From NCBI RefSeq assembly GCF_001556045.1, contig NZ_LSIC01000173.1:1-49316 (forward strand): DNA of 49,316 nucleotides, written 5' to 3'. Shown one piece after another: positions 1,838 through 31,213 of the stretch; the stretch's first letter is position 1, and the number at the start of each line of letters is the position of its first letter. Source of the stretch: Bradyrhizobium sp. CCH5-F6 (GTDB lineage Bacteria > Pseudomonadota > Alphaproteobacteria > Rhizobiales > Xanthobacteraceae). Below the pieces are notes generated by a model that searched no databases, had not been told where the DNA came from, and saw nothing but the letters and a program-made list of their open reading frames with translations. Made by a program: the position numbers and the translations under genes.

Positions 1838-1861
1838 CCCGGCTTGAGATGGCGATTGATC

Positions 1862-6039: not shown

Positions 6040-7294
6040 ATTCCAAAAGATCAACGTCATTGGACTTGGCTATATCGGACTGCCGACCGCGGCGCTGATT
6101 GCGAGCCGGGGCCTTCAGGTGCTCGGTATCGACACCAACGAGCGCATCGTCGATACGGTTGCATCCGGAAAAATCCACATTGCGGAGCCCGATCTCGATG
6201 GCCTCGTGTCCAAGGTCGTGTCGAGCGGTGCCTTGACGACGTCGACCAAACCACAGCCGGCCGACGTCTTCATCATTGCAGTGCCGACGCCGATCGATCG
6301 CGAAAACCATCCAGATCTGTCGAGCGTGAATGCGGCAGTCGACCATATCGTCGATATCCTTGCGCCGGGCAATCTCGTCATCCTCGAATCGACGTCGCCG
6401 ATCGGGACCACCGAGGCCATCGCAAAGCGGATCATTGAGCGCAGGCCGGATCTGCACATAGGCGTCAACGGCAAGGAAGACGGCGCGATCTACGTTGCCT
6501 ATTGCCCGGAACGCGTTTTGCCGGGCCGCATCCTCACCGAGCTCATCAACAACGACAGGTGCATCGGGGGAATTACGCCCACCTGCACGCGGCGCGCTCA
6601 ACGTTTCTACAAGATGTTCGTTCGCGGCGCTTGCGTCGGCACGACGGCGCGCGCAGCCGAATTGGTCAAGCTGACGGAAAACGCGTTCCGCGATACCAAC
6701 ATTGCGTTTGCAAACGAGCTCTCGCTGATCTGCGATAGGTTCGACATCAACGTATGGGAAGTGATCGATATCGCCAACCGCCACCCTCGCGTAAACGTGT
6801 TGCGGCCGGGACCGGGAGTAGGCGGGCACTGCATCGCGGTCGATCCCTGGTTCATCATCGACTCCGCGCCGGATCTCGCGCGCGTGATGCGGATGAGCCG
6901 GGAAGTCAATAATGCCAAGACGCAGAAGATCATCGAGCGCACGGAGGCGCTGATCGACGATCATCCCTATGCAAGCATCGCTTGTTGCGGATTGACCTTC
7001 AAGGCCAACGTCGACGACCTGCGTGAAAGCCCGGCCATGGAGATAGCCACGCATCTCGCGGCGAAATACGGAGAGCGGATCAAGGTCGTTGAGCCGAATC
7101 TGCGCCGTCTACCGCCTCAGTTGGCCGATCATCGCGTCGCATTCGTGAGCATTGATGAAGCTCTGCGCAGTTGCGAAATCGCGATTCTCCTCGTCGATCA
7201 TGATGAGTTCAAGATGGTGCCCCTCTCGGATCGTCGGCATCTCGACGTCATTGATACACGGGGCATATGGCAGGACATGCCGGCACGAACCTGA
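6032..7294 (+). CDS. wecC: UDP-N-acetyl-hexosamine 6-dehydrogenase (WecC/WbpA family)
   Basis: A 420-residue NAD-dependent four-electron dehydrogenase that oxidises C6 of a UDP-HexNAc to the uronic acid. The Rossmann motif is GLGYIGLPTAALIA. The central domain has LVILESTSPIGTTE and YCPERVLPG. The catalytic Cys is in GVGGHCIAVDPWF, and the C-terminal UDP-binding domain has GLTFKANVDDLRESPAMEI. Its ATG overlaps the end of the epimerase gene by 8 bp, giving translational coupling. Substrate could be UDP-ManNAc (WecC) or UDP-GlcNAc (WbpA); the downstream genes favour a route through UDP-GlcNAcA. An AT-poor 71-bp gap follows. Confidence 0.93.
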   Translation: MPEFQKINVIGLGYIGLPTAALIASRGLQVLGIDTNERIVDTVASGKIHIAEPDLDGLVSKVVSSGALTTSTKPQPADVFIIAVPTPIDRENHPDLSSVNAAVDHIVDILAPGNLVILESTSPIGTTEAIAKRIIERRPDLHIGVNGKEDGAIYVAYCPERVLPGRILTELINNDRCIGGITPTCTRRAQRFYKMFVRGACVGTTARAAELVKLTENAFRDTNIAFANELSLICDRFDINVWEVIDIANRHPRVNVLRPGPGVGGHCIAVDPWFIIDSAPDLARVMRMSREVNNAKTQKIIERTEALIDDHPYASIACCGLTFKANVDDLRESPAMEIATHLAAKYGERIKVVEPNLRRLPPQLADHRVAFVSIDEALRSCEIAILLVDHDEFKMVPLSDRRHLDVIDTRGIWQDMPART

Positions 7295-17351: not shown

Positions 17352-17604
17352 TGCAGGTGGGGGTCTTGGGGCAGGTCAGTGACCTCCCGAGCGATCATTA
17401 ATCGTAAATTATCGCGATACATTTAATTGCTTGCCAAATATAATAATGCAGCGTATTAATATTTAATATTCGGATGGTCGCCCCAAGGGGCGGCGCGGCA
17501 CTTGAGGGCTGTCATTGATCATCTTTAATTCAATGGCTTCGGCATAGTGAAGGGCCCGCTCTCGGGCAGGCACTGTGAGCCCGTCGGTGCAACAGGTGGG
17601 GTTA
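17352..17604. promoter_or_regulatory. AT-rich promoter region with two inverted repeats
   Basis: This 253-bp gap precedes the polymerase gene. AGGTCAGTGACCT (17373-17385) is a perfect 6-bp inverted repeat around one base, operator-like. A dense AT block runs from about 17390 to 17472, with ATTTAATT and TATTAATATTTAATATT. CGCCCCAAGGGGCG (17479-17492) is a second perfect inverted repeat. The block probably contains a promoter; the binding proteins are unknown. Confidence 0.5.
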
Positions 17605-18966
17605 ATGTCGTCGAGGAACCGCCTCCCCAACGTTGCGGTAGCGAAGGGTCCAGCGGAGCTGGAGCCCAGGCTGATGGCGAGTGCCGGTGCAGCTCCGCAA
17701 CGCGCTCATCCATTCGCCATCTGGCTGTTCTTTCTCGGTGTCGTATTGCCCGGCGACATGAGCTTTCTGCTCGGGGGGGCAAAGTTTAATCCCGAACGGT
17801 TCGTTATCGCTCTGCTCCTGATTCCGGGCCTCTGTCTGTTGCTGCAGAAGGGGCGGCGGTTCGTTGCATGCGATCTGTTCGTCTTTCTGGCGTCAATGTG
17901 GATGCTGGGAGTATCCGCACAGGAGAGCCGTTCCGCCGAACTGTCGTCGGCTGGAGCGGTGACGCTCGAACTCCTCGGCGGCTATATTGTCGCGCGCGCA
18001 TACATTTTCGGGCACCTGGCCGTCGCCGAGTTCGTCAAGGCCTTGAAGGTCGCTGTAGCGTTGATCGTTGCAGTCGCGATGCTCGACCAGATGTCGGGAA
18101 AGCTCGTGGTCAACGGCTTTCTGGGGCTAAACAGCGATCCGGAGTACAGGAACGGACTGATGAGGGCGGCGTCCGTCTTTCCGCACGCGATTTCTTACGG
18201 GACATTCTGCACCGCTGCCGCAGCCGTATTTTTATACTCGGAGCAACGCCGATTGGCGCAAATAGGTTGGGTCGGCGTTGCGTTCGTCGGATGCTTCCTG
18301 GCGATGTCTTCAGCCCCCATGTTGATGTTCTTCGTAGTCCTGGCGGTCTATAGCTACGACCGGCTCATGAAATCGTCTCCATGGCGATGGAAGGCGCTGG
18401 CAGCGGTCATCGGAGCCGGGCTCGTCTTCATCTACGCGACTACCAACAATCCGACGTCTTGGATCGTCGCGCACCTCACTCTCGATCCCTCGACCGGCTA
18501 CTTTCGCCAGGCCACATGGGATCGAGCGTTCTACAACATCGGTTTCTCTCCCCTGGTGGGCTTTGGGTTCGGCGATATCGGCGAAGGCCAGGAATTCTTC
18601 GACAATGCCTCGGTGGACGCCGTCTGGCTGGTCATCGCGCTTCGGTTTGGTGTTCCAATCGTTGTCTTCATGCTGTTGGCCAATGTGACCTCCTTTTTCG
18701 TCGGGTTTGGACGAAAGACCGCTGGCCCGACGCTCGATCCCTACATGGACAGCGTGCGATCGGGCTTTACGCTTGCGGTGATGACGTTCGTGCTGGTCGG
18801 GCTGACCGTGCACTATTGGAACACCATGTGGATGCTCTGGGGCGCGTATATCGGAGTGCGAGCCTCTCTATACGAACACTTTCTGGGAACGAGACACATC
18901 AGTGAACTTTACTCCGCCTGGTACGCTCCGCCGGTCTATGTTCCAGCAACCGAGCGTCGGTGGTAG
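17605..18966 (+). CDS. O-antigen polymerase/ligase-like membrane protein (Wzy candidate)
   Basis: A protein of 453 residues with roughly ten hydrophobic segments, starting at FAIWLFFLGVVLPGDMSFLL and including IVAVAML, a long periplasmic stretch around residues 280-330 (STGYFRQATWDRAFYNIGFS) and the late FGFGDIGEGQEFFDNASVD. A large periplasmic loop with aromatic and Arg/His residues is characteristic of Wzy polymerases and WaaL-like ligases, and the sequence divergence is normal for Wzy. It is the only polymerase candidate near the Wzx flippase. The start is uncertain: ATG 17605 follows AGGTGGGG; GTG 17575 and ATG 17674 are alternatives. Next gene follows by six bases. Confidence 0.8.
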   Translation: MSSRNRLPNVAVAKGPAELEPRLMASAGAAPQRAHPFAIWLFFLGVVLPGDMSFLLGGAKFNPERFVIALLLIPGLCLLLQKGRRFVACDLFVFLASMWMLGVSAQESRSAELSSAGAVTLELLGGYIVARAYIFGHLAVAEFVKALKVAVALIVAVAMLDQMSGKLVVNGFLGLNSDPEYRNGLMRAASVFPHAISYGTFCTAAAAVFLYSEQRRLAQIGWVGVAFVGCFLAMSSAPMLMFFVVLAVYSYDRLMKSSPWRWKALAAVIGAGLVFIYATTNNPTSWIVAHLTLDPSTGYFRQATWDRAFYNIGFSPLVGFGFGDIGEGQEFFDNASVDAVWLVIALRFGVPIVVFMLLANVTSFFVGFGRKTAGPTLDPYMDSVRSGFTLAVMTFVLVGLTVHYWNTMWMLWGAYIGVRASLYEHFLGTRHISELYSAWYAPPVYVPATERRW

Positions 18967-18972
18967 GTACCC

Positions 18973-20067
18973 ATGCAGTCGTCTTTGAGAGCTGCCGTTC
19001 GGAGTTTCCTTGCCTGCTCATTTGCTGCGGGGTTGGCGTTCCACGCAGCTCACTCTTTCGCTAGGGCGGCCAACGACACGGGGGCGCCGCAGGCATCCAG
19101 CGAGCAAGGCGACGGGGCGTCCGGCGCGCCCCGTTGCGACATTCAGTATCCCGAACTGCTGAGCCGATATCGCGCTCGTCCTTCCTGGTCTGTTGCCGGG
19201 GTCGACTATTGCGTGGGCCGCCCAACGGCGATCGAGCTCAAGGACCCTGCCGCGATCTCGATGAGCGGGGTATCGGTGGATCGCAAGATGCGCATCGTCA
19301 CCGTAACGGGAAACGGCATCACGCTGGATGGCTATGACTTCTCTCTCGATGGCGGCTGGGGCGTCGTTGTCCAGGGTGAGGATACGAAGATTCAGAACTC
19401 CAACTTCATTGTTGGCTCCAACGGCAACAAGCCCGTCCTTGCGGCCGTGTCGTCGTCGAACGTGACGGTCGCCTACAGCACGATTGACGGCCGCAACAAC
19501 CCCGACGTCAGCGGCCTTATCGAGAGTCGTGGTTCAGGATCGTTGACGGTGCAGTATTGCTGGCTGAAGAACGCCGGCGGCGACATGGTTCAAATGCACA
19601 ATGGCGGCCGGGCGGCAGGTCTCGTTCTGCGATACAACCTCATTCAGAATGCCGGCATGGCGCCTGGCGCGCACGGCGACTACACCGAGTTCATCGATGG
19701 ACCGTTCACGGTGACCATCGCGTATAACACGACCGCCCAGAATGGAGGTGCGAGCCAGGGGTTCATGGTGGAGCCTGACATTGGCTCCAACCCCGGCAGG
19801 ATCATCTCGGGCGAAATCGGCAACAATACGTTCACCGGCACGGTCAACGCATTCACTGGCATCACCGTCGCCGACATCGTGAACACGTTTACGGTGCACG
19901 ACAACTATTTCGATCCGTCGAGGACCTCGTCGGGACTGGCATTTGGCGGTCCGATCCGCGGCGGACCCAACGACAACAGCGTCAAGTCGATCTATCTGCG
20001 CAACGTGAACATGCTCACGGGCGCCATCGTGCAGGATGCCAAGGCAGGTGGGCTATCTCATCGCTGA
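18973..20067 (+). CDS. Sec-exported right-handed beta-helix protein, paralogue of the type I secretion substrate
   Basis: A 364-residue protein with a signal peptide (Arg-containing n-region, FLACSFAAGLAFHAAHSF core, probable cleavage after FARA) and a mature parallel beta-helix. Short beta-turn repeats such as NGITLDGYDFSLDGGWGVVV, SNVTVAYSTIDGR and LTVQYCWLKNAGG stack along the chain. It is clearly paralogous to residues 1-314 of the 917-residue protein at 24.3 kb, with long identical blocks such as GDYTEFIDGPF and GASQGFMVEPDIGS. Beta-helix proteins in polysaccharide loci are often lyases, C5-epimerases or depolymerases, but no catalytic triad is assigned here. It sits six bases after the Wzy-like gene, so it is probably co-expressed and acts in the periplasm or beyond. 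Confidence 0.88.
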   Translation: MQSSLRAAVRSFLACSFAAGLAFHAAHSFARAANDTGAPQASSEQGDGASGAPRCDIQYPELLSRYRARPSWSVAGVDYCVGRPTAIELKDPAAISMSGVSVDRKMRIVTVTGNGITLDGYDFSLDGGWGVVVQGEDTKIQNSNFIVGSNGNKPVLAAVSSSNVTVAYSTIDGRNNPDVSGLIESRGSGSLTVQYCWLKNAGGDMVQMHNGGRAAGLVLRYNLIQNAGMAPGAHGDYTEFIDGPFTVTIAYNTTAQNGGASQGFMVEPDIGSNPGRIISGEIGNNTFTGTVNAFTGITVADIVNTFTVHDNYFDPSRTSSGLAFGGPIRGGPNDNSVKSIYLRNVNMLTGAIVQDAKAGGLSHR

Positions 20068-20155
20068 TCGCGCGCGGCCCTGTATCGGCCTGGCTTCACC
20101 CGCGTCGGGCAGGGTCAGGAAAGAGAGCCAAGGGAGTTTTCGTCAGGTCAACGCC

Positions 20156-21346
20156 ATGAATGAAACCACTGCGCGCCGTCAAATCAGGGTTCTCAGAACG
20201 AGCTCCGAGATCGAGCCGCTTCGAGATTTCTGGAATTCGTGCAATCCGCCTCGAGACGCGGATATCGACTTTTTCCTGTTCATCCTGGACACATATCCGC
20301 AGGTTCAACGGCCGCACGTCGTGGTCCTCTACGAAGGAGGGCTTCCCAGCGCGCTTCTCGTCGGTCGATTGGAGGTGAGCCATGTGCCGGTCAAGCTCGG
20401 GTATTTTGCTCTCCCCGTTCCCGAGTTGAGAGTGCTGCAGATCGTGCACGGCGGCTGGTTGGGCGAGATCTCCGAGCAAAACGCCAGGATGCTGCTCGAG
20501 AGCATCATGGAGTCGCTGGCAGCCGGGGAGGCCGATGCAGCCTCGTTTCATTCTCCGGAGATCAGCTCCCCCCTCGTCAAACATGCCTGCGGTCTTCCGA
20601 CCTGGTGGTGCGCCGATCATCTGATCAGCCCGCAAGCTCACCGGTTGCGTGCACTTCCGGAGAAAGCTGGTTCGTTCCTGGCTGGCCTTCCGAAGAAGGG
20701 ACGATACAACCAGCGCAAGCGCATCGAAGATATCGCCTGCGCTTTTGCGGAAAGCAGGATCGAGCGATTTGGCTCGTCGGCCGACCTGGATCAGTTGATG
20801 CGTGACGCGGAGACCATCGCGGCCAAGTCCTATCAGCGGGGGCTGGGTGTCGGGTTCTCGGAAACGCCGATCATCCGATCGCGCCTCCGTTTCGAGGCAA
20901 GCAAGGGCTGGCTGCGAGGATACATTCTTTACCTCGACGGCCAGCCGGCCGCTCTCTGGATCGGCTCGCTGCGCAATGGAGTCTTTCTCAGCGAGTATGT
21001 GTCCTACGATCCTGCCTACGCGAAGTATGGCCCCGGTCTCCACCTGATTCTAAGCGTACTGGAAGAGCTGCAGGCGTCGTCGAGCCGGCCGGCACGGCTG
21101 ATAGACTTTGGCATCGGCGATGCCACCTACAAGGAGATGCTGGCCAACCTCTCGAGACAGGAGTCGACGGTTTACATCTTTGCCCCGCGCTTGAAGGCGG
21201 TCTGCATCAACCTCCTGCGCACCGGCGTTGGTAAGATGAATCGTCTGGCCAAGAGTTTTCTGGGGCGATCATGGCTTGCCGGAATTAAGCGAAAGTGGCG
21301 TACCGGGGTTAGCGGCCAACCGTCCTATCGGGTTCCGCCGTCATGA
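20156..21346 (+). CDS. GNAT-type/FemAB-like acyltransferase (Acetyltransf_6)
   Basis: A 396-residue soluble protein of the double-GNAT, FemAB-related group (PF13480 type), often found in exopolysaccharide loci. The first half carries DIDFFLFILDTYPQVQRPHV and VVLYEGGLPSALLVGRLE. The central SFLAGLPKKGRYNQRKRIED is the usual Lys/Arg-rich link, and the second half has RGYILYLDGQPAALWIGSL and the conserved EYVSYDPAYAKYGPGLHLIL followed by DFGIGDATYKEML. Members are thought to transfer acyl or aminoacyl groups; the target here may be an amino sugar of the repeat unit. ATG 20156 is chosen; an earlier in-frame start lies inside the previous gene. Confidence 0.85.
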   Translation: MNETTARRQIRVLRTSSEIEPLRDFWNSCNPPRDADIDFFLFILDTYPQVQRPHVVVLYEGGLPSALLVGRLEVSHVPVKLGYFALPVPELRVLQIVHGGWLGEISEQNARMLLESIMESLAAGEADAASFHSPEISSPLVKHACGLPTWWCADHLISPQAHRLRALPEKAGSFLAGLPKKGRYNQRKRIEDIACAFAESRIERFGSSADLDQLMRDAETIAAKSYQRGLGVGFSETPIIRSRLRFEASKGWLRGYILYLDGQPAALWIGSLRNGVFLSEYVSYDPAYAKYGPGLHLILSVLEELQASSSRPARLIDFGIGDATYKEMLANLSRQESTVYIFAPRLKAVCINLLRTGVGKMNRLAKSFLGRSWLAGIKRKWRTGVSGQPSYRVPPS

Positions 21347-21458
21347 CTTTGAAGCCCGCCGCAACAGGCCTGTGGCGAGGGAAGCTCCGCGGAGTCATGG
21401 CGGGAGATCCTGGATGTGTTGGTCACAGGAGGATCGAGCTTTTGAGCGCGAGGTCGCA

Positions 21459-22607
21459 ATGAGCGTCTCACTCGGCGTGCTCATGCCGCTGCCACTCAAC
21501 GGAATGGGAGTCGGTTATACCTGCGGTTCCCTCGCGAAGGGGATGGCGGGCGAGAATTTCGACGTGACGCTCGTGACGCCGCGGGCGCAGTGGGCGTTGC
21601 CATCGGTAAAGCTCGTCCAGGTCCTGCCGAACTGGGCGCGATACATCCCGTACCGGTACGTGCGAGGCTGGGTCGGCCGCAAAATCGAGGGTGTATTTCT
21701 CTCTTCCATTGATGAATCGCAATCGAACAGGGCTGCAGCCTATCTTTGGCCCGATGCAAGCCTGGATACGATCCAGGAGTTGAAACGGCGCGGCGTCACC
21801 GTCTTTCGTGAACAGTTCAATTGCCACACCGGGACCGCAAAGAGGATTCTTGATCAGGCGTACGAGCGGCTCGGGGTCGGTGCGGCGCATGGGATCACGT
21901 CCGAGAAGGTCGATCGTGAGGCACAAGTCCTGGCGGCGGTGGATCACGTGTTTTGTCCCAGTCCGCTGGTCGAGGCCTCATTGTTGGAGAACGGCGTACC
22001 TCGATCCAAGTTCTTGAACGCGAGCTATGGTTGGGAGCCGGCACGGCTTTCCGGAAGGCGGCCGTTACTCGCACCGCATGATGGCGTCACAGCGGTGTTC
22101 GTCGGTGCTATTTGTGTGAGGAAAGGGGCGCATCTGCTTCTGGATTACTGGGCCCGGAGCGGGGTGAAGGGAAGGCTCGTGCTTGCAGGGGAGATGGAGC
22201 CTGCCATCAAGGAGAAGTGCGCCGGCCTTCTTGCCAGGGATGATGTGATCGTATTCGACTACCTCAGAGACGTTGGCGCGCTTTATCGATCGGCCGACCT
22301 GTTCATATTCCCTTCGCTGGAGGAGGGGAGTCCCTTGGTCATGTACGAAGCGTGCGGCTCCGGACTTCCGGTCATCACGACGGAGATGGGGGCAGGACGC
22401 TTCGTGCGCGACGGTCGTGAAGGTTTTGTGCTCGATCCTTACGATGCGCCGCGTTGGGTCGAGGCCATTCGTTCGCTGGCCGGCGACCTCGAGCTTCGAC
22501 GAACAATGTCCGAGGCCGCTGTCGCGCGCGCAGAACGTTTCGTCTGGGCCGAGGTCGCCAGCCAGCGCCGTCAGCAGATCAAGGAATGTCTTGGCAATGG
22601 CCTCTGA
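21459..22607 (+). CDS. Glycosyltransferase family 4
   Basis: A 382-residue GT-B enzyme. It opens MSVSLGVLMPLPLNGMGVGY. The linker region carries EREAQ-like KVDREAQVLAAVDHVFCPSP, a typical GT4 boundary. The C-domain has AVFVGAICVRKGAHLLLDYW, LVLAGEM, FDYLRDVGALYRSADLFIFP and the EX7E signature in SLEEGSPLVMYEACGSGLPV. ATG 21459 follows GAGGTCGCA; the 112-bp gap upstream shows no gene. Its stop overlaps the next glycosyltransferase start by 11 bp. Confidence 0.92.
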   Translation: MSVSLGVLMPLPLNGMGVGYTCGSLAKGMAGENFDVTLVTPRAQWALPSVKLVQVLPNWARYIPYRYVRGWVGRKIEGVFLSSIDESQSNRAAAYLWPDASLDTIQELKRRGVTVFREQFNCHTGTAKRILDQAYERLGVGAAHGITSEKVDREAQVLAAVDHVFCPSPLVEASLLENGVPRSKFLNASYGWEPARLSGRRPLLAPHDGVTAVFVGAICVRKGAHLLLDYWARSGVKGRLVLAGEMEPAIKEKCAGLLARDDVIVFDYLRDVGALYRSADLFIFPSLEEGSPLVMYEACGSGLPVITTEMGAGRFVRDGREGFVLDPYDAPRWVEAIRSLAGDLELRRTMSEAAVARAERFVWAEVASQRRQQIKECLGNGL

Positions 22608-23634
22608 TCGCGCAAAGCTTGCGGTGCTGATCGTCGGGTACCGCAATCCCGACGACATTCAGCGCTGCTTGAGGTCGCTCGCAGCGTCCGATTGGCAGGA
22701 GTTTGAAGTCTTCGTTTGCGAGAACGGTGGACGGGAAGCTTTCGAGGCCCTGGTAGATGCGCTTATCGGTCAGGAGCGAATGCTGCCATGCATTCAAGAT
22801 GAAGATGATGCCGTGGATACACCCGGCGGACGGTTTGGCTCCGTCGTCAAATGCCGTTTCCAGGACCGGCCTATCATCGTTCGAATTGGACTCGCGACGG
22901 ATAATCTCGGTTATGGCGGCGGGGTAAACGCCTGGCTCGAACGCCTGCTCGGCACGCGCGGCTGGGAAGCTGTGCTCGTTCTCAATCCCGATACCGAGGT
23001 CCACGATAACTGCCTGACGGAATTGATGGCCAAGGCAGATCAGGGCTTCGGAATGATTGGTGGCACCCTGGTTTTCGATCATGCGCCGGACAAGATCATC
23101 AACTATGGACTTCAATGGTCGCCCGTCACAGGCCGGGTTCTCGCCGTCGGCAGGAATTTGGCGGCGGGCACATCTCCCGCGCCTGAGGTGCTTTCACGGA
23201 TCGATTCGATTAGTGGCGCCTGCGTGCTGGTCACGCGTGCGTTTATCGAGGACGTCGGATTGATGGCCGAGGACTATTTTCTCTACATGGAGGATGTGGA
23301 CTGGGGGCGACGCCGCGGCAAGCACAGGATCGGCTTCGCGGAACGGGCGGTCATACGCCACGTTGGCGGCACCGCTATCGGGTCTGCGACTGATTTCAGA
23401 AAGCAGTCATTCCTTTCGGTCTATCTGTCCGCGCGCAACAGTATCCTGTTCGCGCGCCGGTGGGCCGGACGCCGGTGGGTGCTTCACCTTGGATGGGGTT
23501 TGCTGCACGCCGTCAGGTACGCTGCTATCGGCGCCCCCCTGGCCGGCAAGATTACCCTGGTCGGCCTCATGGACGGGGTACGAGGAAAGTCCGGGAAGCC
23601 CGACGCATTCATGCGATTGCCGCGGTCCATATAG
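22597..23634 (+). CDS. Glycosyltransferase family 2 (rhamnosyltransferase-like)
   Basis: A 345-residue GT2 enzyme of the WbbL/RfbF-like type. LAVLIVGYRNPDDIQRCLRS opens the fold; TDNLGYGGGVNAWLE and LVLNPDTEVHDN are the sugar-nucleotide and metal motifs; SGACVLVTRAFIEDVGLMAE and YFLYMEDVDWGRR are the acceptor and catalytic-base region, all typical of rhamnosyltransferase-like GT2 proteins. An insertion of about 20 acidic residues (DEDDAVDTPGG) near residue 68 is unusual. The C-terminus is basic and hydrophobic. Start ATG 22597 overlaps the previous gene. It is the last gene before a 657-bp gap. Confidence 0.92.
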   Translation: MASDRAKLAVLIVGYRNPDDIQRCLRSLAASDWQEFEVFVCENGGREAFEALVDALIGQERMLPCIQDEDDAVDTPGGRFGSVVKCRFQDRPIIVRIGLATDNLGYGGGVNAWLERLLGTRGWEAVLVLNPDTEVHDNCLTELMAKADQGFGMIGGTLVFDHAPDKIINYGLQWSPVTGRVLAVGRNLAAGTSPAPEVLSRIDSISGACVLVTRAFIEDVGLMAEDYFLYMEDVDWGRRRGKHRIGFAERAVIRHVGGTAIGSATDFRKQSFLSVYLSARNSILFARRWAGRRWVLHLGWGLLHAVRYAAIGAPLAGKITLVGLMDGVRGKSGKPDAFMRLPRSI

Positions 23635-24291
23635 GCGCTGCGTATTTCCAGCTTCGATATCTTGGGGCGAGGCTCACGCCTGCATGTTCTGCGCGGGCGG
23701 GCAACCTCAAATTGGGCGGCGCCGCGCAGGACGGGGCCGCGTGTGAGTCCGAGTAGTCCGGGGAGCGATCCGCGCTTTGCAGTCTTCGGCCCCGAACAGT
23801 CCGGTGGAATTGGTCGAACTCGCTCAAATATTCCAAATATTGTGGCGTTGGCTTGGCGTCGTGGCTTTGGTTAGGGCGGCCGGTCTACTTTGTCGCAATG
23901 ACCCCTGTTATTTATTGCCATTAAGTTCATTATCGCGAAGCGAGTATTGATTCGCGGCGCAAGTTCGCTGGGCCTCCTCAGGCCATTCGATCATTGGCAA
24001 ATTTGGCCGCCGGTGTCTGTGTGCCCGGTAATAATACGAGTTTCGTCCGACGCTTGCGGTGCGGTATAAATGCGTTTGGACAAACCGCGTATTTAATTCC
24101 TGTCGCGTGAGTGTGGCGGTCTGAGCCAAACATGACCCCAGCACAGCCTCGTTGTAGTCCAAAAAAAGTCCGTGGTGCTCGGTCAAGAGTCGCCTGAGCC
24201 GAGGCAATCGGCTTCTGAGGATAGCGTGCCGCTCGGGGGACCTCGTGGTTGAGCGCACGCTGTCGGATATTAAATCAGGAGAACAGGGTAG
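23635..24291. other. 657-bp gap upstream of the secreted beta-helix gene
   Basis: No convincing gene was found. AT-rich stretches lie at about 23825-23850 and 23905-23935 (TTATTTATTGCCATTAAG) and near 24269 (ATATTAAATC). An AGGAG ribosome-binding site at about 24280 serves ATG 24292. A reverse frame across about 23908-24245 is open and could be a decayed or orphan tail, but it has no start of its own or recognised motif. The size fits a regulated promoter for a secreted protein. Confidence 0.4.
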
Positions 24292-27045
24292 ATGGCAATT
24301 AACGACGGCTCCGCAAATGCTCCAATTGGAACGCCGCAGCTTCCGAGCTTGCTCGATTCCTACGGTGCGAACCGGCCCGGATGGAATGTCGCAGGTGTGG
24401 ATTACTACGTGGGGGTACCTCAGGGATTGACGCTGAAAAATCCGGCGACGATCTCGATGGCCGGGGTATCGGTGGATACGGCTAACCACATCGTCACGGT
24501 GACGGGCAGCAACGTCACGCTGTCCGGCTATGACTTCTCGCTCAACGGCGGGTGGGGCGTCGTTGTCCAGGGCGCCAATACGAAGATTCTTGATTCCAAC
24601 TTCAAGGTCGGGTCCAACGGCAACATGCCGATTTTGGCGACGGCGTCGTCTTCGAATCTGACGGTCATGTCCGTCACGATTGACGGCAGCAACAGCGGCA
24701 GCGTCAGTGGCCTCATTGAAAATCGTGGTTCGGGCACGCTGACCGTGGAGTATTCCTGGCTCAAGAATGCCGGGGGCGACATGGTTCAAATGCACAATGG
24801 CGGCAAGTCGGCCGGCCTTGTCCTGGAATATAACCTGATTCAGAACGCCGGAATGGCTCCTGGTGCGCACGGCGACTACACCGAGTTCATCGATGGACCG
24901 TTTACCGCCACCATCATGTACAACACCACCACCCAGAACGGGGGCGCGAGCCAGGGCTTCATGGTGGAGCCGGACATCGGCAGCAGCGCCGGCACCATCG
25001 TCTCGGGTGAAATCGGCAACAATACACTCACCGGCAGCGTCAACGCATTCACCGGCGTCACGGTGGCGGACATCCAGAATACGTTCACCATCCACGACAA
25101 CTACTTCGATCCGTCCAGCTCGTCCTCGGGACTGGCGTTCGGCGGTGTCCGGGGCGGTCCCAACGACTCCAGCGCCAAGTCGATCTATATCCACAACGTC
25201 AACATGAAGAACGGTGCCGTCCTTCAGGATGCAAATGCGCCGACATCGCCGACACCCACACCCCCGTCCGGCTCGGCTGCACCCACTATCGCCTCCTTCT
25301 CGAACGATAGCGGCATCGCTGGCGACGGCATCACGAACGACAGCACCCTCGAGCTGAAGGGCAAGGCGGCTGCCGGAAGCACGGTCAAGGTCTATGACGG
25401 CGGGACCCAGATCGGCTCGACGACTGCGGATTCGAGCGGGAATTGGGACTACATCACGAAGGTCCTGACTGACGCCAAGCATACGCTCACCGCAACGGCG
25501 ACCAATTCGTCCGGGCAGACCAGCGCGGCGTCGGCTGCGTTGGCAGTCACCATTGACACCAAGGCGCCGACTGCACCGACCATTGCCAGCAACAAGGTGA
25601 ACAGCGCCAATCAGGTGGTGATGTCGGGCAATGCGGAAGCGAGCAGCGTCGTAAAGGTGTTCGACGGCGCGACCCAGATCGGGACTGCGACCGCCAACAG
25701 CAGCGGCGTGTGGGCCTATACGTCCGCAGCCCTTGCGGTCGGTGCGCACAGCCTCACGGCAAAGGCAACGGACGCGGCAGGCAACACCAGCGTGGCGTCA
25801 ACCGTTGTCACGGCCAGCGTCACCTCGACGTCCCCCACCACGCCGACGTCGCCCACCACCCCGACGTCGCCCACTGCCGGCACGGTGATCGAGTCGGCCG
25901 GTGCGACGCGCCTCGTCGAGAGCGGCGACAAATACTACCTCAACAGCAGCACCGGGACGGGCCCGACGCTGAAGTACAAAGGCGTGGAGTTTGTCGAGGG
26001 GTCGGATCACACCTGGGCGCCGATCGGTGCGGAGAAGACAGCCACGGGCTATCAGGTCGTCTGGAAGGAGGCGAGCACGGGTCGATACACGGCGTGGAAC
26101 ACCGACAACAACGGCAACTACCTCTCCCACGTGGCCTTGAGCGGCGCGGTAGGCGGCACCGTGTCAGGTACGAGCTCTGCCCTCAAATCGCTGGAGACGA
26201 CCTTCCATCAGGACTTCAACGGCGACGGGCAGATCGGTGGGTCCACTACGTCCACTCCGACCACGCCAACCTCGCCGACCTCGCCAACCACACCGACGTC
26301 GCCGACTGCCGGCACGGTGATCGAATCGGCCGGTGCGACGCGCCTCGTTGAGAGTGGGGACAAATACTACCTCAACAGCAGCACCGGGACGGGCCCGACG
26401 CTGAAGTATAAGGGCGTGGAGTTTGTCGAAGGGTCAGATCACACCTGGGCCCCGATTGGTGCGGAGAAGACGGCCACCGGCTATCAGGTCGTCTGGAAGG
26501 AGGCGAGCACGGGTCAGTACACGGCGTGGAACACCGACAACAACGGAAACTACGTTTCCCACGTCAGCAGCCTCACCGGCTCCACGTCGGGCGGCACCGT
26601 GTCGGGCACGAGCTCGGGCCTCAAATCGCTCGAGACGAGCTTCCAGCAGGATCTGAACGGTGATGGACAGGTCGGCACTTCCAGCGTAACTGCCAGCGCG
26701 ACCGCGTTGTCCACGACCAGCACTCAGGTCGTCGCGACGTCGAGCCCGACCGGCAACGTACAGACGAGCACGTCGAAAGACGAAGTCTTCGTTGCCAGCA
26801 GCAAGGCCGATACGTTCTCGTTTGCTGCGAATTTCGGCAATGACGTCATCAAGGGCTTCGCTGCCAGCGGACCTGCTCACGACACGATCGAGTTCAGCAA
26901 GGGCGTGTTCGACAGCTTTGCGAGCGTTCTCTCCCACGCGGCCCAATCGGGCCAGGACGTCGTCATCGCGACGGGGAGTGATACCCTCACGCTGAAGAAC
27001 ACCAAGCTCGATTCCTTGAGCAGCCAGGACTTCCACTTCGCGTAG
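24292..27045 (+). CDS. Multidomain type I secretion substrate: beta-helix, Ig-like, two Trp-rich repeats, secretion tail
   Basis: A 917-residue protein without an N-terminal signal peptide. Residues 1-314 form a right-handed beta-helix, closely paralogous to the Sec-type protein at 19 kb. A Pro/Thr linker (315-326) leads to two bacterial Ig-like domains (about 327-512; APTIASFSNDSGIAG, then DTKAPTAPTIAS). Next come a TSPTTP-rich linker and two near-identical Trp-rich units (from 531 and 675) like PF07483 domains, each ending with an EF-hand-like DFNGDGQIG or DLNGDGQVG. The last 120 residues (FGNDVIKGF, then HDTIEFSKGVF, ending SSQDFHFA) look like the C-terminal signal region of type I substrates. 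AGGAG precedes ATG 24292. The genes for a PrtD-type transporter and adaptor follow, which fits. Likely a surface-acting enzyme or matrix protein. Confidence 0.9.
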   Translation: MAINDGSANAPIGTPQLPSLLDSYGANRPGWNVAGVDYYVGVPQGLTLKNPATISMAGVSVDTANHIVTVTGSNVTLSGYDFSLNGGWGVVVQGANTKILDSNFKVGSNGNMPILATASSSNLTVMSVTIDGSNSGSVSGLIENRGSGTLTVEYSWLKNAGGDMVQMHNGGKSAGLVLEYNLIQNAGMAPGAHGDYTEFIDGPFTATIMYNTTTQNGGASQGFMVEPDIGSSAGTIVSGEIGNNTLTGSVNAFTGVTVADIQNTFTIHDNYFDPSSSSSGLAFGGVRGGPNDSSAKSIYIHNVNMKNGAVLQDANAPTSPTPTPPSGSAAPTIASFSNDSGIAGDGITNDSTLELKGKAAAGSTVKVYDGGTQIGSTTADSSGNWDYITKVLTDAKHTLTATATNSSGQTSAASAALAVTIDTKAPTAPTIASNKVNSANQVVMSGNAEASSVVKVFDGATQIGTATANSSGVWAYTSAALAVGAHSLTAKATDAAGNTSVASTVVTASVTSTSPTTPTSPTTPTSPTAGTVIESAGATRLVESGDKYYLNSSTGTGPTLKYKGVEFVEGSDHTWAPIGAEKTATGYQVVWKEASTGRYTAWNTDNNGNYLSHVALSGAVGGTVSGTSSALKSLETTFHQDFNGDGQIGGSTTSTPTTPTSPTSPTTPTSPTAGTVIESAGATRLVESGDKYYLNSSTGTGPTLKYKGVEFVEGSDHTWAPIGAEKTATGYQVVWKEASTGQYTAWNTDNNGNYVSHVSSLTGSTSGGTVSGTSSGLKSLETSFQQDLNGDGQVGTSSVTASATALSTTSTQVVATSSPTGNVQTSTSKDEVFVASSKADTFSFAANFGNDVIKGFAASGPAHDTIEFSKGVFDSFASVLSHAAQSGQDVVIATGSDTLTLKNTKLDSLSSQDFHFA
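25861..26235 (+). repeat. Trp-rich coding repeat, copy 1
   Basis: A unit of about 375 bp in the type I substrate gene, offset 432 bp from copy 2. It encodes the stretch from TVIESAGATRLVESGDKYYL to DFNGDGQIGG. Base identity with copy 2 is high and many stretches are exactly identical, so this is a recent or homogenised in-frame duplication. Confidence 0.85.
26293..26667 (+). repeat. Trp-rich coding repeat, copy 2
   Basis: Second copy of the Trp-rich unit. Differences cluster near the end of the unit (NGNYVSHVSSLTGSTSGG against NGNYLSHVALSGAVGG). The intervening linkers (about 25828-25875 and 26250-26305) are short tandem Pro-Thr-Ser coding units that could vary in number between strains. Confidence 0.85.
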
Positions 27046-27139: not shown

Positions 27140-29077
27140 ATGACTGACGTTGGACGGCGGGGGGTGATCCCCCCGCCTGCGAATCTTTATCGAATCCCAC
27201 TTATTGTGCATTTGTCAGGACTATGGTCGGCCGGACGGCAGTGGGCCGGCGACGCGGAATTGCCGACGGGGCGGCTGGCCGGTTGGGCGAGGCGTTTGGT
27301 TGAAGCCCTCCGGCAGAAGATATTCGCTGATCGCCTGCGGGCGACGGAGGATTATGAGGGGCCGCAGTCGGAGATGTCGGCATTCCTGCGGTCTTGCCGC
27401 AGGATATTCTGGGCTCTCGCGGCCTTCAGCGGAATGAGCAATCTGCTCATGCTCACCGGTTCGTTCTTCATGCTGCAGGTCTATGATCGGGTGCTGCCCG
27501 GGCGCAGCATACCGACCTTGGTGGCCTTGATGGTTCTGGCCACGGTCCTTTACCTGTTTCAGGGTGGGCTCGATTTGGTCCGAAGCAGGATCTGCGTGCG
27601 GGTCGGCCGGTACTTTGATGAAAGGCTCGGCATTCGCATATTCGACGCGCTCGTTCGCCTGCCTTTGAAGACCAGGGCCGATGGCGACGGCCTGCAGCCG
27701 GTGCGGGACCTCGACCAGGTCCGCAGCTTCCTGTCGAGCGGCGGGCCGACTGCGCTGTTCGATCTGCCCTGGATGCCGATCTATCTGGGCGTTTGCTTTC
27801 TCTTCCACTTCTGGATCGGCGTCACTGCGCTGGCCGGCGCGCTGGTGCTCGTCGGCATTACGATCCTCACGGAAGCCCGGACGCGCGGACCGGCGAAGGC
27901 GTCCTCGCGTCTCGCAGTCTCGCGAACGGCACTGGCGCTCGAAGGCCGACGAAATGCCGAGGTTCTGCAAGCCATGGGCATGCGGCAGCAGGCGGCGTTG
28001 CGTTGGCGGGATGTCAACGCGAAGTATCTCGCGGCCCATGAGCGAGCCAGCGATGTCGCGAGCGGGCTCGGGGGCGCCTCCAAGATCTTCCGGGCGATCC
28101 TGCAATCGCTGGTTCTTGCCGTTGGCGCAGTCCTCGTCATCAACCAGGAATCGACGGCCGGCATCATCATTGCCGGATCGATCCTGACCGCGCGGGCCTT
28201 GGCGCCCGTCGAAATGGCGATTGCGAACTGGAAAGGGTTCGTTGCTGCGCGGCAATCGGGACAACGGCTCGATTCGTTGCTGAAGCTCCTGCCCGGCGAG
28301 GAGGAGCGGTTGGCATTGCCGCCTCCTGTTGAAACTCTCACGGTCGAGAATCTCTATATTGGCGCTCCAAACTCGGAGAGGCCCACCGTCAGTGACGTCT
28401 CGTTCCAGCTGCGGAGCGGGCAGGCGGTCGGCATCATTGGACCGAGCGGATCCGGCAAATCGACGCTGGCACGCGCGCTGGTGGGGGTGTGGCCGGGCAT
28501 TCGAGGCCGGATCCGGCTGGACAATGCCGCGCTCGATCACTGGTCTTCCGACGCCCTCGGCAAGCACATTGGCTATCTTCCCCAGGACGTCGAATTGTTC
28601 GACGGCAGCATCGCGATGAACATTGCGAGATTCGACCCGCAGGCAACCGCCGCCGTCGTCCTGGAGGCCGCGCGTGCCGCCGGCGCGCACGACCTCGTCC
28701 TCTCCCTTCCGGACGGCTACAGCACGAAGATCGGCGAGGGTGGGCTGGCGCTGTCGGCAGGGCAGCGGCAGCGTATCGGGCTCGCGCGTGCCTTCTACGG
28801 CAAACCGTTCCTGGTCGTGCTCGATGAGCCCTCCTCCAATCTCGACGCCGACGGCGAGGAGGCGTTGACAGAGGCGATCCTGAACGTGCGTCGCCGCGGC
28901 GGGATCGTCGTCGTTGTCGCCCATCGCCCGAAGGCGCTTGAAGCCGTCGATCATGTCCTGTGCCTCGGGGAAGGCAAGGTTCAGTCTTTCGGCAAGAGAG
29001 AGGAGGTCCTCAGGAAGGTCTTGCGGAATCCCGTACCGCTCAAGGTCGTGGCGGAAGCCCATGGAGGCGGCCGATGA
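27140..29077 (+). CDS. Type I secretion ABC transporter/permease, PrtD family
   Basis: A 645-residue inner-membrane exporter. Transmembrane segments begin at FWALAAFSGMSNLLMLTGSF with the family's FMLQVYDRVLPGRSIPTLVA, then six helices to about residue 370. The ATPase domain has Walker A GPSGSGKST (434-442), signature LSAGQRQR (from about 538) and Walker B FLVVLDEPSSNLD. It would power export of the adjacent 917-residue protein. Start is uncertain: ATG 27140 follows AAGGGCGGG, but a strong hairpin lies just inside, and ATG 27374 begins nearer the usual PrtD N-terminus. Codon use between the two still looks coding. The stop overlaps the adaptor start (ATGA). Confidence 0.92.
   Translation: MTDVGRRGVIPPPANLYRIPLIVHLSGLWSAGRQWAGDAELPTGRLAGWARRLVEALRQKIFADRLRATEDYEGPQSEMSAFLRSCRRIFWALAAFSGMSNLLMLTGSFFMLQVYDRVLPGRSIPTLVALMVLATVLYLFQGGLDLVRSRICVRVGRYFDERLGIRIFDALVRLPLKTRADGDGLQPVRDLDQVRSFLSSGGPTALFDLPWMPIYLGVCFLFHFWIGVTALAGALVLVGITILTEARTRGPAKASSRLAVSRTALALEGRRNAEVLQAMGMRQQAALRWRDVNAKYLAAHERASDVASGLGGASKIFRAILQSLVLAVGAVLVINQESTAGIIIAGSILTARALAPVEMAIANWKGFVAARQSGQRLDSLLKLLPGEEERLALPPPVETLTVENLYIGAPNSERPTVSDVSFQLRSGQAVGIIGPSGSGKSTLARALVGVWPGIRGRIRLDNAALDHWSSDALGKHIGYLPQDVELFDGSIAMNIARFDPQATAAVVLEAARAAGAHDLVLSLPDGYSTKIGEGGLALSAGQRQRIGLARAFYGKPFLVVLDEPSSNLDADGEEALTEAILNVRRRGGIVVVVAHRPKALEAVDHVLCLGEGKVQSFGKREEVLRKVLRNPVPLKVVAEAHGGGR
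27156..27177 (+). terminator. Strong GC hairpin between substrate and transporter genes
   Basis: GGCGGGGGG (27156-27164), loop TGAT, then CCCCCCGCC (27169-27177): a perfect 9-bp stem. It is followed only loosely by T-rich sequence, so it may be a weak terminator or attenuator, or a structure limiting translation. It lies between the substrate gene and most of the transporter gene, which would keep transporter levels low, as is known between hlyA and hlyB. Confidence 0.5.
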
Positions 29078-30387
29078 GCAGCCAGGTGTCACCGGCGATG
29101 CAATCCATCCAGCGTTACATGCTCGTCGGTATGATCATGTTCGGTGTGGTGACGTTCGGGATCGGCGGTTGGGCGACGACGAGCCAATTGTCCGGCGCGG
29201 TGATCGCCCAAGGCGTGGTCGTGGTGGATTCGAGCGTCAAGAAGGTCCAGCACGCCACCGGTGGGATCGTGGGCGAGTTGCGCGTGCGCCAGGGCGATCG
29301 GGTCAATGCAGGCGACGTCTTGATCCGCCTCGACGAGACCCAGACGCTCGCGAATGCGACGATCGTCACCAATAGCATCGATGAGCTGCTCGCGCGGCAG
29401 GCTCGGCTCGAGGCCGAGCGCGATGGTGCCGAGCAGGTCGTGTTTCCCAAGGTGCTGCTCGACCGCGCCAGGGAGAACAACTCCGAGGCGAGCCGTGCGA
29501 TGACGGCGGAGCGGAAGCTGTTCGACCTTCGTCGTCAGGCGAGGAGCGGCCAGAAGGCGCAGTTGCAGGAGAAGAGCGCGCAGCTGGAAAACGAGATCAA
29601 GGGCTATACGGGGCAGACCGAGGCAAAGCAGAAGGAAGTCGAATTCATTCGGCAGGAGCTGGAGGGCGTGCGCAGCCTCTGGCAGAAGAATCTGGTGCCG
29701 ATCACGCGGCTCAACTCCCTCGAGCGCGACTCCGCCCGCATCGAAGGCGAGCGCAGCCAGCTCGCAGGAATGATCGCGCAGTCCAAGGGCAAGATCTCCG
29801 AAATCGGGCTTCAGATCATTCAGATCGACCAGGATCTGCGGACGGAGGTCGGCAAGGACCTGATAGAAACGCGGTCGAAACTCTCCGAGCTGGGCGAACG
29901 CAAAACCGCGGCGGTCGATCAGCTGAACCGAATCGATATCAGGGCACCGCAATCCGGCCGCGTCCACGAGCTTAGCGTCCACACCGTCGGGGGGGTCATC
30001 TCGCCCGGCGAGCAGATCATGCTGATCGTGCCTGACGCGGACTCGCTCGCGGTCGAGGTCAAGATCGCACCGCGCGACATCGATCAGGTCTATGTCGGGC
30101 AGACAGCGACCATGCGGTTCGCAGCGTTCAACCAGAAGACCACGCCCGAAATCGACGGGGAGGTCAGCATGGTCTCGGCAGACATCACGCAGGATCAGCG
30201 CGCCGGCACCAGTTACTACACGGGCCGCGTCCTGCTGAAGCCGGAAGAGCTGGCGAAACTCGGCTCGGCCAAGCTGCTGCCCGGCATGCCGGTCGAGGTC
30301 TTCATCAAGACGGCAGGTCGGACCGCGCTCTCATACTTGCTCAAGCCGCTGCAGGATCAGGCGGGGCGCGCGTTCAAGGAGCGTTGA
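29074..30387 (+). CDS. HlyD-family type I secretion periplasmic adaptor
   Basis: A 437-residue adaptor for the PrtD-type transporter. One membrane segment near residues 16-36 (MLVGMIMFGVVTFGIGGWAT), then AQGVVVVDSSVKKVQHATGG and VRQGDRVNAGDVLIRLDETQ as the lipoyl half. A long coiled-coil hairpin follows (about 100-290), with the second lipoyl half IDIRAPQSGRVHELSVHTVG and the C-terminal LPGMPVEVFIKTAGRTALSY and LKPL tail typical of PrtE/HlyD. GGAGGCGG precedes ATG 29074, which overlaps the transporter stop. No outer-membrane TolC-like gene follows; the NodT-like protein at 47.4 kb belongs to another operon. Confidence 0.94.
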   Translation: MSSQVSPAMQSIQRYMLVGMIMFGVVTFGIGGWATTSQLSGAVIAQGVVVVDSSVKKVQHATGGIVGELRVRQGDRVNAGDVLIRLDETQTLANATIVTNSIDELLARQARLEAERDGAEQVVFPKVLLDRARENNSEASRAMTAERKLFDLRRQARSGQKAQLQEKSAQLENEIKGYTGQTEAKQKEVEFIRQELEGVRSLWQKNLVPITRLNSLERDSARIEGERSQLAGMIAQSKGKISEIGLQIIQIDQDLRTEVGKDLIETRSKLSELGERKTAAVDQLNRIDIRAPQSGRVHELSVHTVGGVISPGEQIMLIVPDADSLAVEVKIAPRDIDQVYVGQTATMRFAAFNQKTTPEIDGEVSMVSADITQDQRAGTSYYTGRVLLKPEELAKLGSAKLLPGMPVEVFIKTAGRTALSYLLKPLQDQAGRAFKER

Positions 30388-30841: not shown

Positions 30842-31213
30842 GTGATCGGTCCTGCCCGAGAAAGCCCGCTGGCGCTTTCTCGCTCCAGTAAATTATTAAA
30901 TCAACGATAAATTATACGCGCATAGAATAATCATCCGCCACTCCGCGGCGCGAGGCCTGTGCCCCGCCGCGTTTCGACGCACCTCCACATCAGAAGCAAG
31001 CGGCGCCGATCGCGGTTTCGCTGCATCCATCCTTCCCCATTCGTGTCTGCAAGGCGCTACCGGCGTGACTGCCGTGTCTCCAGCGATGGCCTATTTAATG
31101 GCGTTGCCATTTAAATAAAACAGAGTTAAATAAATTAAATGGTTTTGTGGGCTGGCGGGCGCGCCCGCGCCGGGCCGGCCGACACTGTGTGGCGTTCGAA
31201 GGGGGATCGGCAG
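30842..31213. promoter_or_regulatory. AT-rich control region of the cysteine peptidase gene, with inverted repeat
   Basis: This 372-bp gap has two AT islands (about 30888-30935 and 31090-31141). The second contains a near-perfect inverted repeat: TATTTAATGGC (31092-31102), loop GTT, GCCATTTAAATA (31106-31117), with one extra A in the right arm. It is followed by AGTTAAATAAATTAAAT. This looks like an operator or promoter for the gene at 31214. Between the islands the sequence is GC-rich without a gene I can support. Confidence 0.5.

What the first reader, a model, noticed from the sequence alone, without database searches (positions are those of the whole stretch)
18973..27045. One beta-helix protein exported by two routes: Sec copy and type I-secreted fusion copy
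The Sec-type protein (18973-20067) and residues 1-314 of the 917-residue type I substrate (24292-27045) share the same beta-helix through its whole length, with long identical blocks such as GDYTEFIDGPF and GASQGFMVEPDIGS. One copy has a signal peptide. The other has none but has gained Ig-like and Trp-rich domains and a C-terminal secretion region. A duplication followed by a swap of export route, inside a polysaccharide locus, suggests the same activity is needed in two compartments, for example periplasmic trimming and extracellular remodelling. Type I-secreted mannuronan C5-epimerases are a known parallel.
Basis: partly seen in the sequence, partly recalled or inferred. Interest (0 to 1): 0.75.

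Follow-up and report, generated by a model that had tools for sequence, protein, structure and literature searches.

The report
Twin sugar-polymer proteins, two export routes
In a Bradyrhizobium-type gene cluster for a cell-surface polysaccharide, two copies of one protein domain leave the cell by two different routes, and related genomes suggest that copying of DNA between the genes keeps the working part of the two copies alike, as if both must fit the same polymer.

Summary
The Sec copy (18973-20067) and residues 5-316 of the type I copy (24292-27045) are 74% identical, and the second sits directly before PrtD and HlyD genes. The pair recurs: 21 of 22 Bradyrhizobium genomes with a strong match (265 searched) carry a short and a long copy, 18 of them within 20 kb. 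"Duplication, then a swap of route" is too simple. In the window, shared residues use the same codon at 4 of 26 cap sites but 141 of 206 body sites. In two relatives the copies differ by 1 base in 874 and 2 in 987, although orthologues differ by 7-23%. That is gene conversion, seen in different locus types. The Sec body diverges with the neighbouring Wzy-like polymerase, not with the transporter PrtD. Most likely both copies act on their own locus's polymer, one in the periplasm and one outside, perhaps as lyases or depolymerases; no activity is shown.

The parts
17575..18966 (+). Wzy-like polysaccharide polymerase/ligase (463 aa), whose stop codon lies 6 bp before the Sec copy
   Evidence: Only a weak Pfam Wzy_C hit, E 0.0053, 17 bits against a cut-off of 31.7; AF2 model (pLDDT 69.8, 11 rows) best matches WaaL O-antigen ligase, Foldseek E 7.6e-4, prob 1.00; 8 hydrophobic segments
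18973..20067 (+). Sec-type beta-helix protein (S copy, 364 aa)
   Evidence: AF2 model pLDDT 88.1, right-handed parallel beta-helix by PDB comparison
18973..19062 (+). hydrophobic leader, likely signal peptide (end approximate)
   Evidence: sequence; hydropathy; no signal-peptide predictor was available
19111..19252 (+). S cap: route-specific N-terminal part of the core, with the Cys pair C55/C80
19253..20045 (+). S body: tract alike in DNA to the type I copy (79.6% over 793 bp)
   Evidence: BLASTN; codon contrast
24292..27045 (+). type I-secreted fusion copy (T copy, 917 aa, no cysteine)
24304..24448 (+). T cap (no Cys, YGANRP motif)
24449..25238 (+). T body: partner of 19253-20045
25285..25809 (+). 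two Ig-like domains (Big_13, Big_6) of the T copy
25912..26670 (+). two W_rich_C domains; the second placed from the 144-residue offset of the repeat
26779..27042 (+). C-terminal type I secretion region (start approximate)
   Evidence: motif D[ST]FAxxLxHAxQ near the end of 22 of 28 T frames, this one included
27140..29077 (+). PrtD-type type I secretion ABC transporter
   Evidence: TIGR01842, 718.8 bits over a cut-off of 510.15
28960..30387 (+). HlyD-type membrane fusion protein (true start probably near 29077)
   Evidence: TIGR01843, 399.6 bits over a cut-off of 208.65
4915..7294 (+). WecB (UDP-GlcNAc 2-epimerase) and WecC (UDP-ManNAc dehydrogenase): precursor of an aminouronic acid
   Evidence: wecB 465.6 over 210.15 bits; UDP-ManNAc dehydrogenase 565.6 over 459 bits
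8477..9952 (+). Wzx-type flippase
   Evidence: Polysacc_synt_3 E 2.5e-58

Best explanation
The pair is a matched set of polysaccharide-acting beta-helix proteins for one polymer, the one built by the Wzx/Wzy machinery of the same locus. The Sec copy works in the periplasm beside the Wzy-like polymerase on nascent chains (trimming, chain length, release). The type I copy carries the same groove outside the cell on matrix-binding domains and works on the finished polymer. Shown by sequence: the shared core, the co-occurrence, the linkage, and homogenisation of the body between the two genes by gene conversion, in the window type and some others with the cap left route-specific. Inferred: that the body is the part that meets the polymer, that the activity is cleavage (lyase or depolymerase; the sugar genes point to an aminouronic acid, which a lyase could cleave), and that selection for the same specificity retains the conversions.
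For: Identity 74%. Pair in 21 of 22 Bradyrhizobium genomes with a strong match (25 of 265 with any), 18 of the 21 on one contig with starts 1.6-19 kb apart. Tree of 59 cores from 27 loci: export route changes at least 13 times; in 10 of 12 locus types, grouped by me on that tree, the Sec copy groups with a type I core of its own type. Holding 14 Sec bodies as one group is rejected (p-AU 5e-6), while their caps form one group (SH-aLRT 97-99). Conversion tracts: G016 body dS 0 over 267 codons against 0.23-0.30 in six orthologue comparisons, G204 body 0.005 against 1.2 in two; 1 mismatch in 874 bp (G016, sharp at both ends) and 2 in 987 bp (G204). Window pair: codons 4/26 in cap, 141/206 in body, p 2e-7; 0 of 16 orthologue controls shows this contrast at p<0.05. 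Sec body diverges with Wzy (rho 0.76, p 0.001) and not with PrtD (0.20, p 0.20) over 13 loci. Of the 50 fold neighbours shown, nearly all are lyases, hydrolases, epimerases or phage tail proteins, RbmB and AlgE6 among them.
Against: No activity or localisation is shown. Foldseek gave no PDB hit at E<=0.001 (best 2.9e-3, a pectate lyase); the VIA matches fit right-handed beta-helices in general, with the adhesin PfbA at ranks 2 and 4. The codon contrast reaches p<0.01 (uncorrected) in only 8 of 32 S-T comparisons: window, G154, G046, G010, G016, G017, G055, and one non-partner domain of G018. In the window's own clade orthologues are closer than the pair (85-87% against 74%), so its conversion is old; in the body-only tree its S+T group has support 87, not starred, and the cap test for it is p 0.07. 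The cap tree of all 59 rows still needs 9 changes of route, since in several loci the caps are alike too. The T body follows Wzy less well (0.46, p 0.023), and the T cap follows Wzy too (0.59, p 0.005), which the simple reading does not predict. G003, G004, G005 and G120 do not show own-pair matching. In G001 the Wzy resembles the window's but the Sec copy does not. 13 of 27 Sec copies lack the cap Cys pair.
Confidence: 0.6

Rival explanations
1. The beta-helix is a binding module, not an enzyme: S is a periplasmic chain receptor or export partner of Wzy, and T is a matrix adhesin that carries the same binding groove outside.
For: T carries Ig-like and W_rich_C domains, as matrix adhesins may; the fold list includes the adhesin PfbA at ranks 2 and 4; no curated lyase or hydrolase family is hit by either copy.
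Against: Nearly all other fold neighbours shown are polysaccharide-active enzymes or phage tail proteins. H234 and D122 are present in 59 of 59 cores, as expected of a functional site, though this is not proof of catalysis.
Confidence: 0.22
2. The homogenisation is a neutral by-product of two similar genes lying a few kb apart; it says nothing of a shared function.
For: Conversion is expected between close repeats, and the pair lies within 20 kb in 18 of 21 genomes.
Against: The pair is kept in 21 of 22 genomes; the cap stays apart where the Sec copy carries the Cys pair (14 of 27 Sec caps; 0 of 32 T caps in the alignment); the Sec body tracks Wzy and not PrtD. None of these excludes neutrality of single tracts.
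Confidence: 0.15
3. Repeated independent duplications: the type I gene gave rise to a new Sec gene in each lineage, with no conversion.
For: 13 changes of route on the core tree; in several lineages (G001, G007, G014, G204) cap and body are both alike in the two copies, and in G163 nearly so.
Against: Cap and body trees conflict: Cys-type Sec caps group across loci. In G016 one 874-bp tract is almost identical inside two otherwise diverged genes that have orthologues of both kinds in neighbouring genomes.
Confidence: 0.12
4. The pair is a C5-epimerase pair, as AlgG and AlgE in Azotobacter.
Confidence: 0.1

Closest known systems
Sinorhizobium meliloti ExoK / ExsH (succinoglycan glycanases)
   Same: Two glycanases for one rhizobial polymer, ExsH secreted by the PrsDE system (PMC1403797 and PMC4916376, passages read); ExoK taken as Sec-exported (recalled).
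   Different: No glycosidase family was hit here; the ExoK/ExsH fold is GH16 (recalled), here it is a right-handed beta-helix. Conversion between exoK and exsH was not examined.
Azotobacter vinelandii AlgG / AlgE1-7
   Same: A periplasmic epimerase and type I-secreted epimerases for one polymer (PMC4432689, passages); beta-helix module (AlgE6).
   Different: No sequence-family link here; substrate and activity unknown; in this pair the cores are 74% identical.
Vibrio cholerae RbmB
   Different: The passages read mention no type I twin ('type I' had no occurrence in the text); no RbmB hit in the PDB sequence searches, though I did not check that it is in that sequence copy.
Pantoea stewartii WceF
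   Same: Beta-helix stewartan hydrolase in an EPS cluster; mutants make longer chains (PMC7949094, abstract and passages).
   Different: Tat-exported tailspike-like trimer; the passages read mention no second copy.
Long-lasting concerted evolution in prokaryotes (26 genes)
   Same: Paralogues homogenised within genomes (PMC6053082, abstract only).
   Different: Here part of a gene is homogenised between two proteins of different export route, and in some loci the route-specific end is spared.

Membership tests
Type I secretion substrate of the PrtD/HlyD class | no N-terminal signal peptide | tested here: met
   T copy starts MAINDGS, 4 residues before the core
Type I secretion substrate of the PrtD/HlyD class | adjacent ABC transporter and membrane fusion protein | tested here: met
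   PrtD 94 bp downstream, then HlyD; same order after the T copy in most related loci searched, not in L028
Type I secretion substrate of the PrtD/HlyD class | conserved C-terminal secretion region | tested here: met
   motif in 22 of 28 T frames, the window's included; of 6 misses 2 are cut by the fetched stretch, 1 is masked, 2 are near variants, 1 (G018) lacks it
RTX protein | glycine-rich nonapeptide repeats (PF00353) | tested here: not met
   no PF00353 hit for the T copy at E 1e-3
ExoK/ExsH-type GH16 glycanase | GH16 domain | tested here: not met
   no glycosidase domain among the Pfam hits of either copy at E 1e-3
Right-handed parallel beta-helix fold | coiled three-sheet solenoid | tested here: met
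PL6 / AlgE / RbmB polysaccharide lyase or epimerase | sequence-family membership | tested here: inconclusive
   no lyase or epimerase family in Pfam or NCBIfam; no credible PDB sequence hit; fold neighbours only
PL6 / AlgE / RbmB polysaccharide lyase or epimerase | catalytic residues in the groove | not testable with these tools
Concertedly evolving paralogue pair | paralogues in one genome closer than orthologues | tested here: inconclusive
   Met where close orthologues are in the set for G016, G204 and G014 over the whole core, and for G055 over the body; NOT met for the window type, the japonicum type, or the whole core of G015, G017 and G055. G001, G007, G163 have no close orthologue in the set.
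Concertedly evolving paralogue pair | conflict between gene regions | tested here: met
   cap against body trees and AU tests; the window-type cap test alone is p 0.07; codon contrast in the window pair p 2e-7

The most novel reading that the evidence does not exclude
The polymer-specific body of a beta-helix enzyme acts as an exchangeable cassette that gene conversion copies between a periplasmic and an exported gene, so that both compartments keep the same specificity as the locus's polymerase changes, while a short N-terminal cap resists conversion where it carries the export-route requirements (a Cys pair for the oxidising periplasm, none for the type I route).
Probability: 0.45. Interest if true: 0.78.

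Novelty: new variant of a known kind. Interest (0 to 1): 0.62.

Why it matters
Bacterial capsule and EPS loci swap sugar genes and polymerases often; how accessory proteins keep pace in two compartments is, to my knowledge, an open question. If the reading is right, gene conversion is the means, and the conversion tracts mark the specificity-bearing part of the protein. It also gives a testable matched set (Wzy, S, T) for many different polymers, hence a route to new specific depolymerases.

Tried and rejected
Whole genome of the window: none is held. Sequence-level link to solved structures: P0001 gave 3 hits up to E 1, the best E 0.0004 to a cadmium carbonic anhydrase over 76 residues; profile A3 gave 3, the best E 0.012 to an adenoviral fibre; I take these as chance. 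Foldseek against PDB gave no hit at E<=0.001, and against viral models none at E<=0.001; the VIA list shows the fold but not a family. Phage origin: no match in 50,697 annotated phage records; 27 IMG/VR contigs hold relatives, most of them distant. Of 10 neighbour genes from five of these contigs, 3 had PHROG hits: two beside the relative in L100 (major head, portal) and one in L103 (terminase large subunit). PHROGs knows none of the six relatives and window sequences given, nor the two neighbour genes there. Not followed further.

Direction of conversion: from the tree I first read S to T in G016 and T to S in G204; nucleotide distances do not settle G016 and lean only slightly to T in G204, so no direction is claimed. 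Independent duplication alone was put low on the cap/body conflict. UDP-ManNAc3NAcA as the precursor is only a guess: WecB and WecC pass their cut-offs, while the WlbA-like, acetyltransferase and DegT genes do not pass those of the named equivalogs.

Rows left out of the 59-core set: G006 (Sec copy interrupted by masked bases), G019 and G020 (broken or cut genes), G022 (one copy only), loci L029, L030, L033, L034, L035, the three weak genomes, and the third, unlinked copies of G011 and G012. The 13 loci of the correlation test were picked one to three per locus type out of 19; types G007, G018 and G021 are not in it. For loci with two T domains the first (T1) was used there. The 21 correlations of that call are not corrected for number.
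Full report
1. What is there. The Sec-type protein and the first 316 residues of the 917-residue protein are 74% identical over 313 residues. The long protein adds two Ig-like domains, two W_rich_C domains and a C-terminal region and lies 94 bp before a PrtD-type ABC transporter and a HlyD-type fusion protein, both above their curated cut-offs. It has no cysteine in 917 residues; the Sec copy has four, one in the leader and a pair in the cap, C55 and C80.

2. Surroundings. Upstream lie WecG, WecB, WecC, an oxidoreductase, a Wzx flippase, an acetyltransferase, two DegT aminotransferases, an epimerase/dehydratase and several glycosyltransferases. WecB and UDP-ManNAc dehydrogenase pass their cut-offs, so an N-acetylmannosaminuronic acid precursor is likely; further modification is a guess. 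The gene 6 bp before the Sec copy (17575-18966) has only a weak Wzy_C hit, but an AlphaFold model (pLDDT 69.8) matches the WaaL O-antigen ligase best (Foldseek E 7.6e-4, prob 1.00). I call it Wzy-like.

4. Co-occurrence. Of 265 Bradyrhizobium genomes, 25 match the core profile; 3 of these are weak partial hits (E 1e-6 to 8e-4). Of the other 22, 21 have one short open frame (366-595 aa) and one long (595-2639 aa); the exception, G019, has one gene in pieces near a contig end. In 18 of the 21 the two lie on one contig with starts 1.6-19 kb apart; in G009, G011 and G021 they are on separate contigs. A family-wide draw (391 genomes, partly the same) had 17 matches, 13 strong; 11 of those 13 have the pair (in G006 the short copy is interrupted by masked bases), and G019 and G020 hold broken copies. 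Pairs also occur in Telmatospirillum, Rhodoblastus, Rhodopila and a Hyphomicrobiales MAG, but that sample was chosen by having a match, and the Rhodopila long copy lacks the C-terminal motif and shows no PrtD in its stretch. In the 33 loci compared, the Wzy-like gene, glycosyltransferases and PrtD-HlyD recur around the pair.

5. Cap and body. On a tree of 59 cores (27 Sec, 32 type I) export route changes at least 13 times (the program warns of long branches, G120 and G021 above all). In 10 of 12 locus types the Sec copy groups with a type I core of its own type; the types are my own grouping, made on that tree. G003/G004/G005 and G120 are the exceptions. Yet the first ~48 residues partly follow route: 14 Sec caps with a Cys pair form one group (SH-aLRT 97 in the full set, 99 in the 35-row subset); the pair is in 14 of 27 Sec copies and in none of the 32 T rows of the alignment. 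In the other 13 loci the Sec cap has no such pair and in several is close to the T cap, so the full cap tree still needs 9 changes (body tree 17; 35-row subset 3 against 6). Holding the 14 Sec bodies together is rejected (p-AU 5.1e-6); holding the japonicum-type S and T caps together is rejected (0.0018); for the window type the same cap test gives 0.07, and its S+T group in the body tree has support 87 (99/98 in the full core tree). The cap has only 49 columns, so the DNA evidence matters more.

6. DNA evidence for conversion. In G016 the two genes share a tract with 1 mismatch in 874 bp, bounded by diverged sequence on both sides; body dS is 0 over 267 codons, against 0.34 in the cap and 0.23-0.30 in six orthologue comparisons. 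In G204 there are 2 mismatches in 987 bp (body dS 0.005, cap included in the tract) against about 1.2 between the G014 and G204 orthologues. G055 has body dS 0.046 and cap dS 0.58. In the window, where a residue is shared, the codon is the same at 4 of 26 cap sites and 141 of 206 body sites (Fisher p 2.4e-7); BLASTN finds only 19253-20045 against 24449-25238 (79.6%). The same test, one-sided, gave p<0.01 in 8 of 32 S-T comparisons (uncorrected; one of them, G018 T1, is not the matching domain) and p<0.05 in 0 of 16 orthologue controls. The other comparisons either show the whole core alike or are too diverged to tell. In the window's clade S-S identities (85-87%) exceed S-T (68-74%), so that event is older than the clade. 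Assembly error is possible for G016 (draft contig of 233 kb), less so for G204, where the pair lies in one 8.3-Mb contig.

7. What the body follows. Over 13 loci the Sec body identity rises with that of the Wzy-like protein (Mantel, Spearman 0.76, p 0.001), not with PrtD (0.20, p 0.20), weakly with HlyD (0.43, p 0.044). The T body follows Wzy at 0.46 (p 0.023) and PrtD at 0.07 (p 0.35). The Sec cap follows Wzy at 0.29 (p 0.11), but the T cap does so at 0.59 (p 0.005), which the simple reading does not predict (uncorrected). This is broadly what a protein matched to the polymer would do. Exchange of a whole biosynthesis block, with the transporter left in place, would give the same pattern. G001 is an exception: its Wzy resembles the window's (66%) but its Sec body does not (34%); its type I protein has two cores, one 93% identical to its Sec copy, the other of the window type.

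8. Mechanism. I take the pair to be a matched set for one polymer: S beside Wzy in the periplasm, T outside. Shown: the shared core, linkage, conversion, and route-specific caps in 14 loci. Inferred: polymer contact by the body, cleavage as the activity, and selection as the keeper of the pattern. A plausible reason why the cap is spared is that a Cys pair suits the periplasm and not a type I substrate; the sparing is seen, the reason is not tested, and type I copies elsewhere do carry 0 to 6 cysteines (11 of 28 frames none).

9. What is known. In S. meliloti low-molecular-weight succinoglycan depends on ExoK and ExsH under the conditions tested (PMC4916376, passages), and ExsH leaves by PrsDE (PMC1403797, passages). 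AlgG and AlgE1-7 divide one polymer between periplasm and outside, AlgE by type I secretion (PMC4432689, passages). RbmB and WceF are single beta-helix enzymes in EPS clusters (PMC11637428, PMC7949094, abstracts and passages). Long-lasting concerted evolution in prokaryotes is described as very rare (PMC6053082, abstract). Searches of the open library for conversion together with polysaccharide enzymes or type I secretion (10 of 10 papers listed, none holding 'gene conversion', 10 of 512 listed) and for Bradyrhizobium beta-helix type I proteins (15 of 52 listed, 1 of 1) showed nothing on this pair in the rows I saw; I read listings there, apart from the papers named, and subscription journals are mostly not held.

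10. Verdict. Not shown: any activity, localisation, or the reason for the spared cap.

Noticed in passing
31139-31828 (+): BTLCP (PF06035), a LapG-like cysteine protease, lies about 750 bp after the HlyD gene and keeps that place in L024, L025, L026, L079 and L080. Such proteases release type I-secreted adhesins in other bacteria (recalled).
   Followed up: partly
L001 8453-12931; L002; L028; L083: Some type I copies carry two beta-helix cores; in L001 one matches the Sec copy of its genome (93%) and the other groups near the window type.
   Followed up: partly
L085-L111, chiefly L100 and L103: Relatives of the core on 27 IMG/VR viral contigs, most of them distant; L100 has it near head and portal genes, L103 near a terminase gene.
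   Followed up: partly
L036 and L040 (Afipia birgiae): The type I copy is interrupted by a stop or frame change and the Sec copy is cut by a contig end: perhaps a decaying pair.
   Followed up: no
L038 (G021), L083 (G120): The short copies have twin-arginine-like leaders (RRREF, RR), so the periplasmic route may be Tat in these.
   Followed up: no
1844-3034 (+): A 396-aa protein in the polysaccharide locus with no Pfam hit even at E 10.
   Followed up: no
G011 and G012, elsewhere in the genome: A third, more distant copy (568 and 590 aa frames) away from the pair.
   Followed up: no
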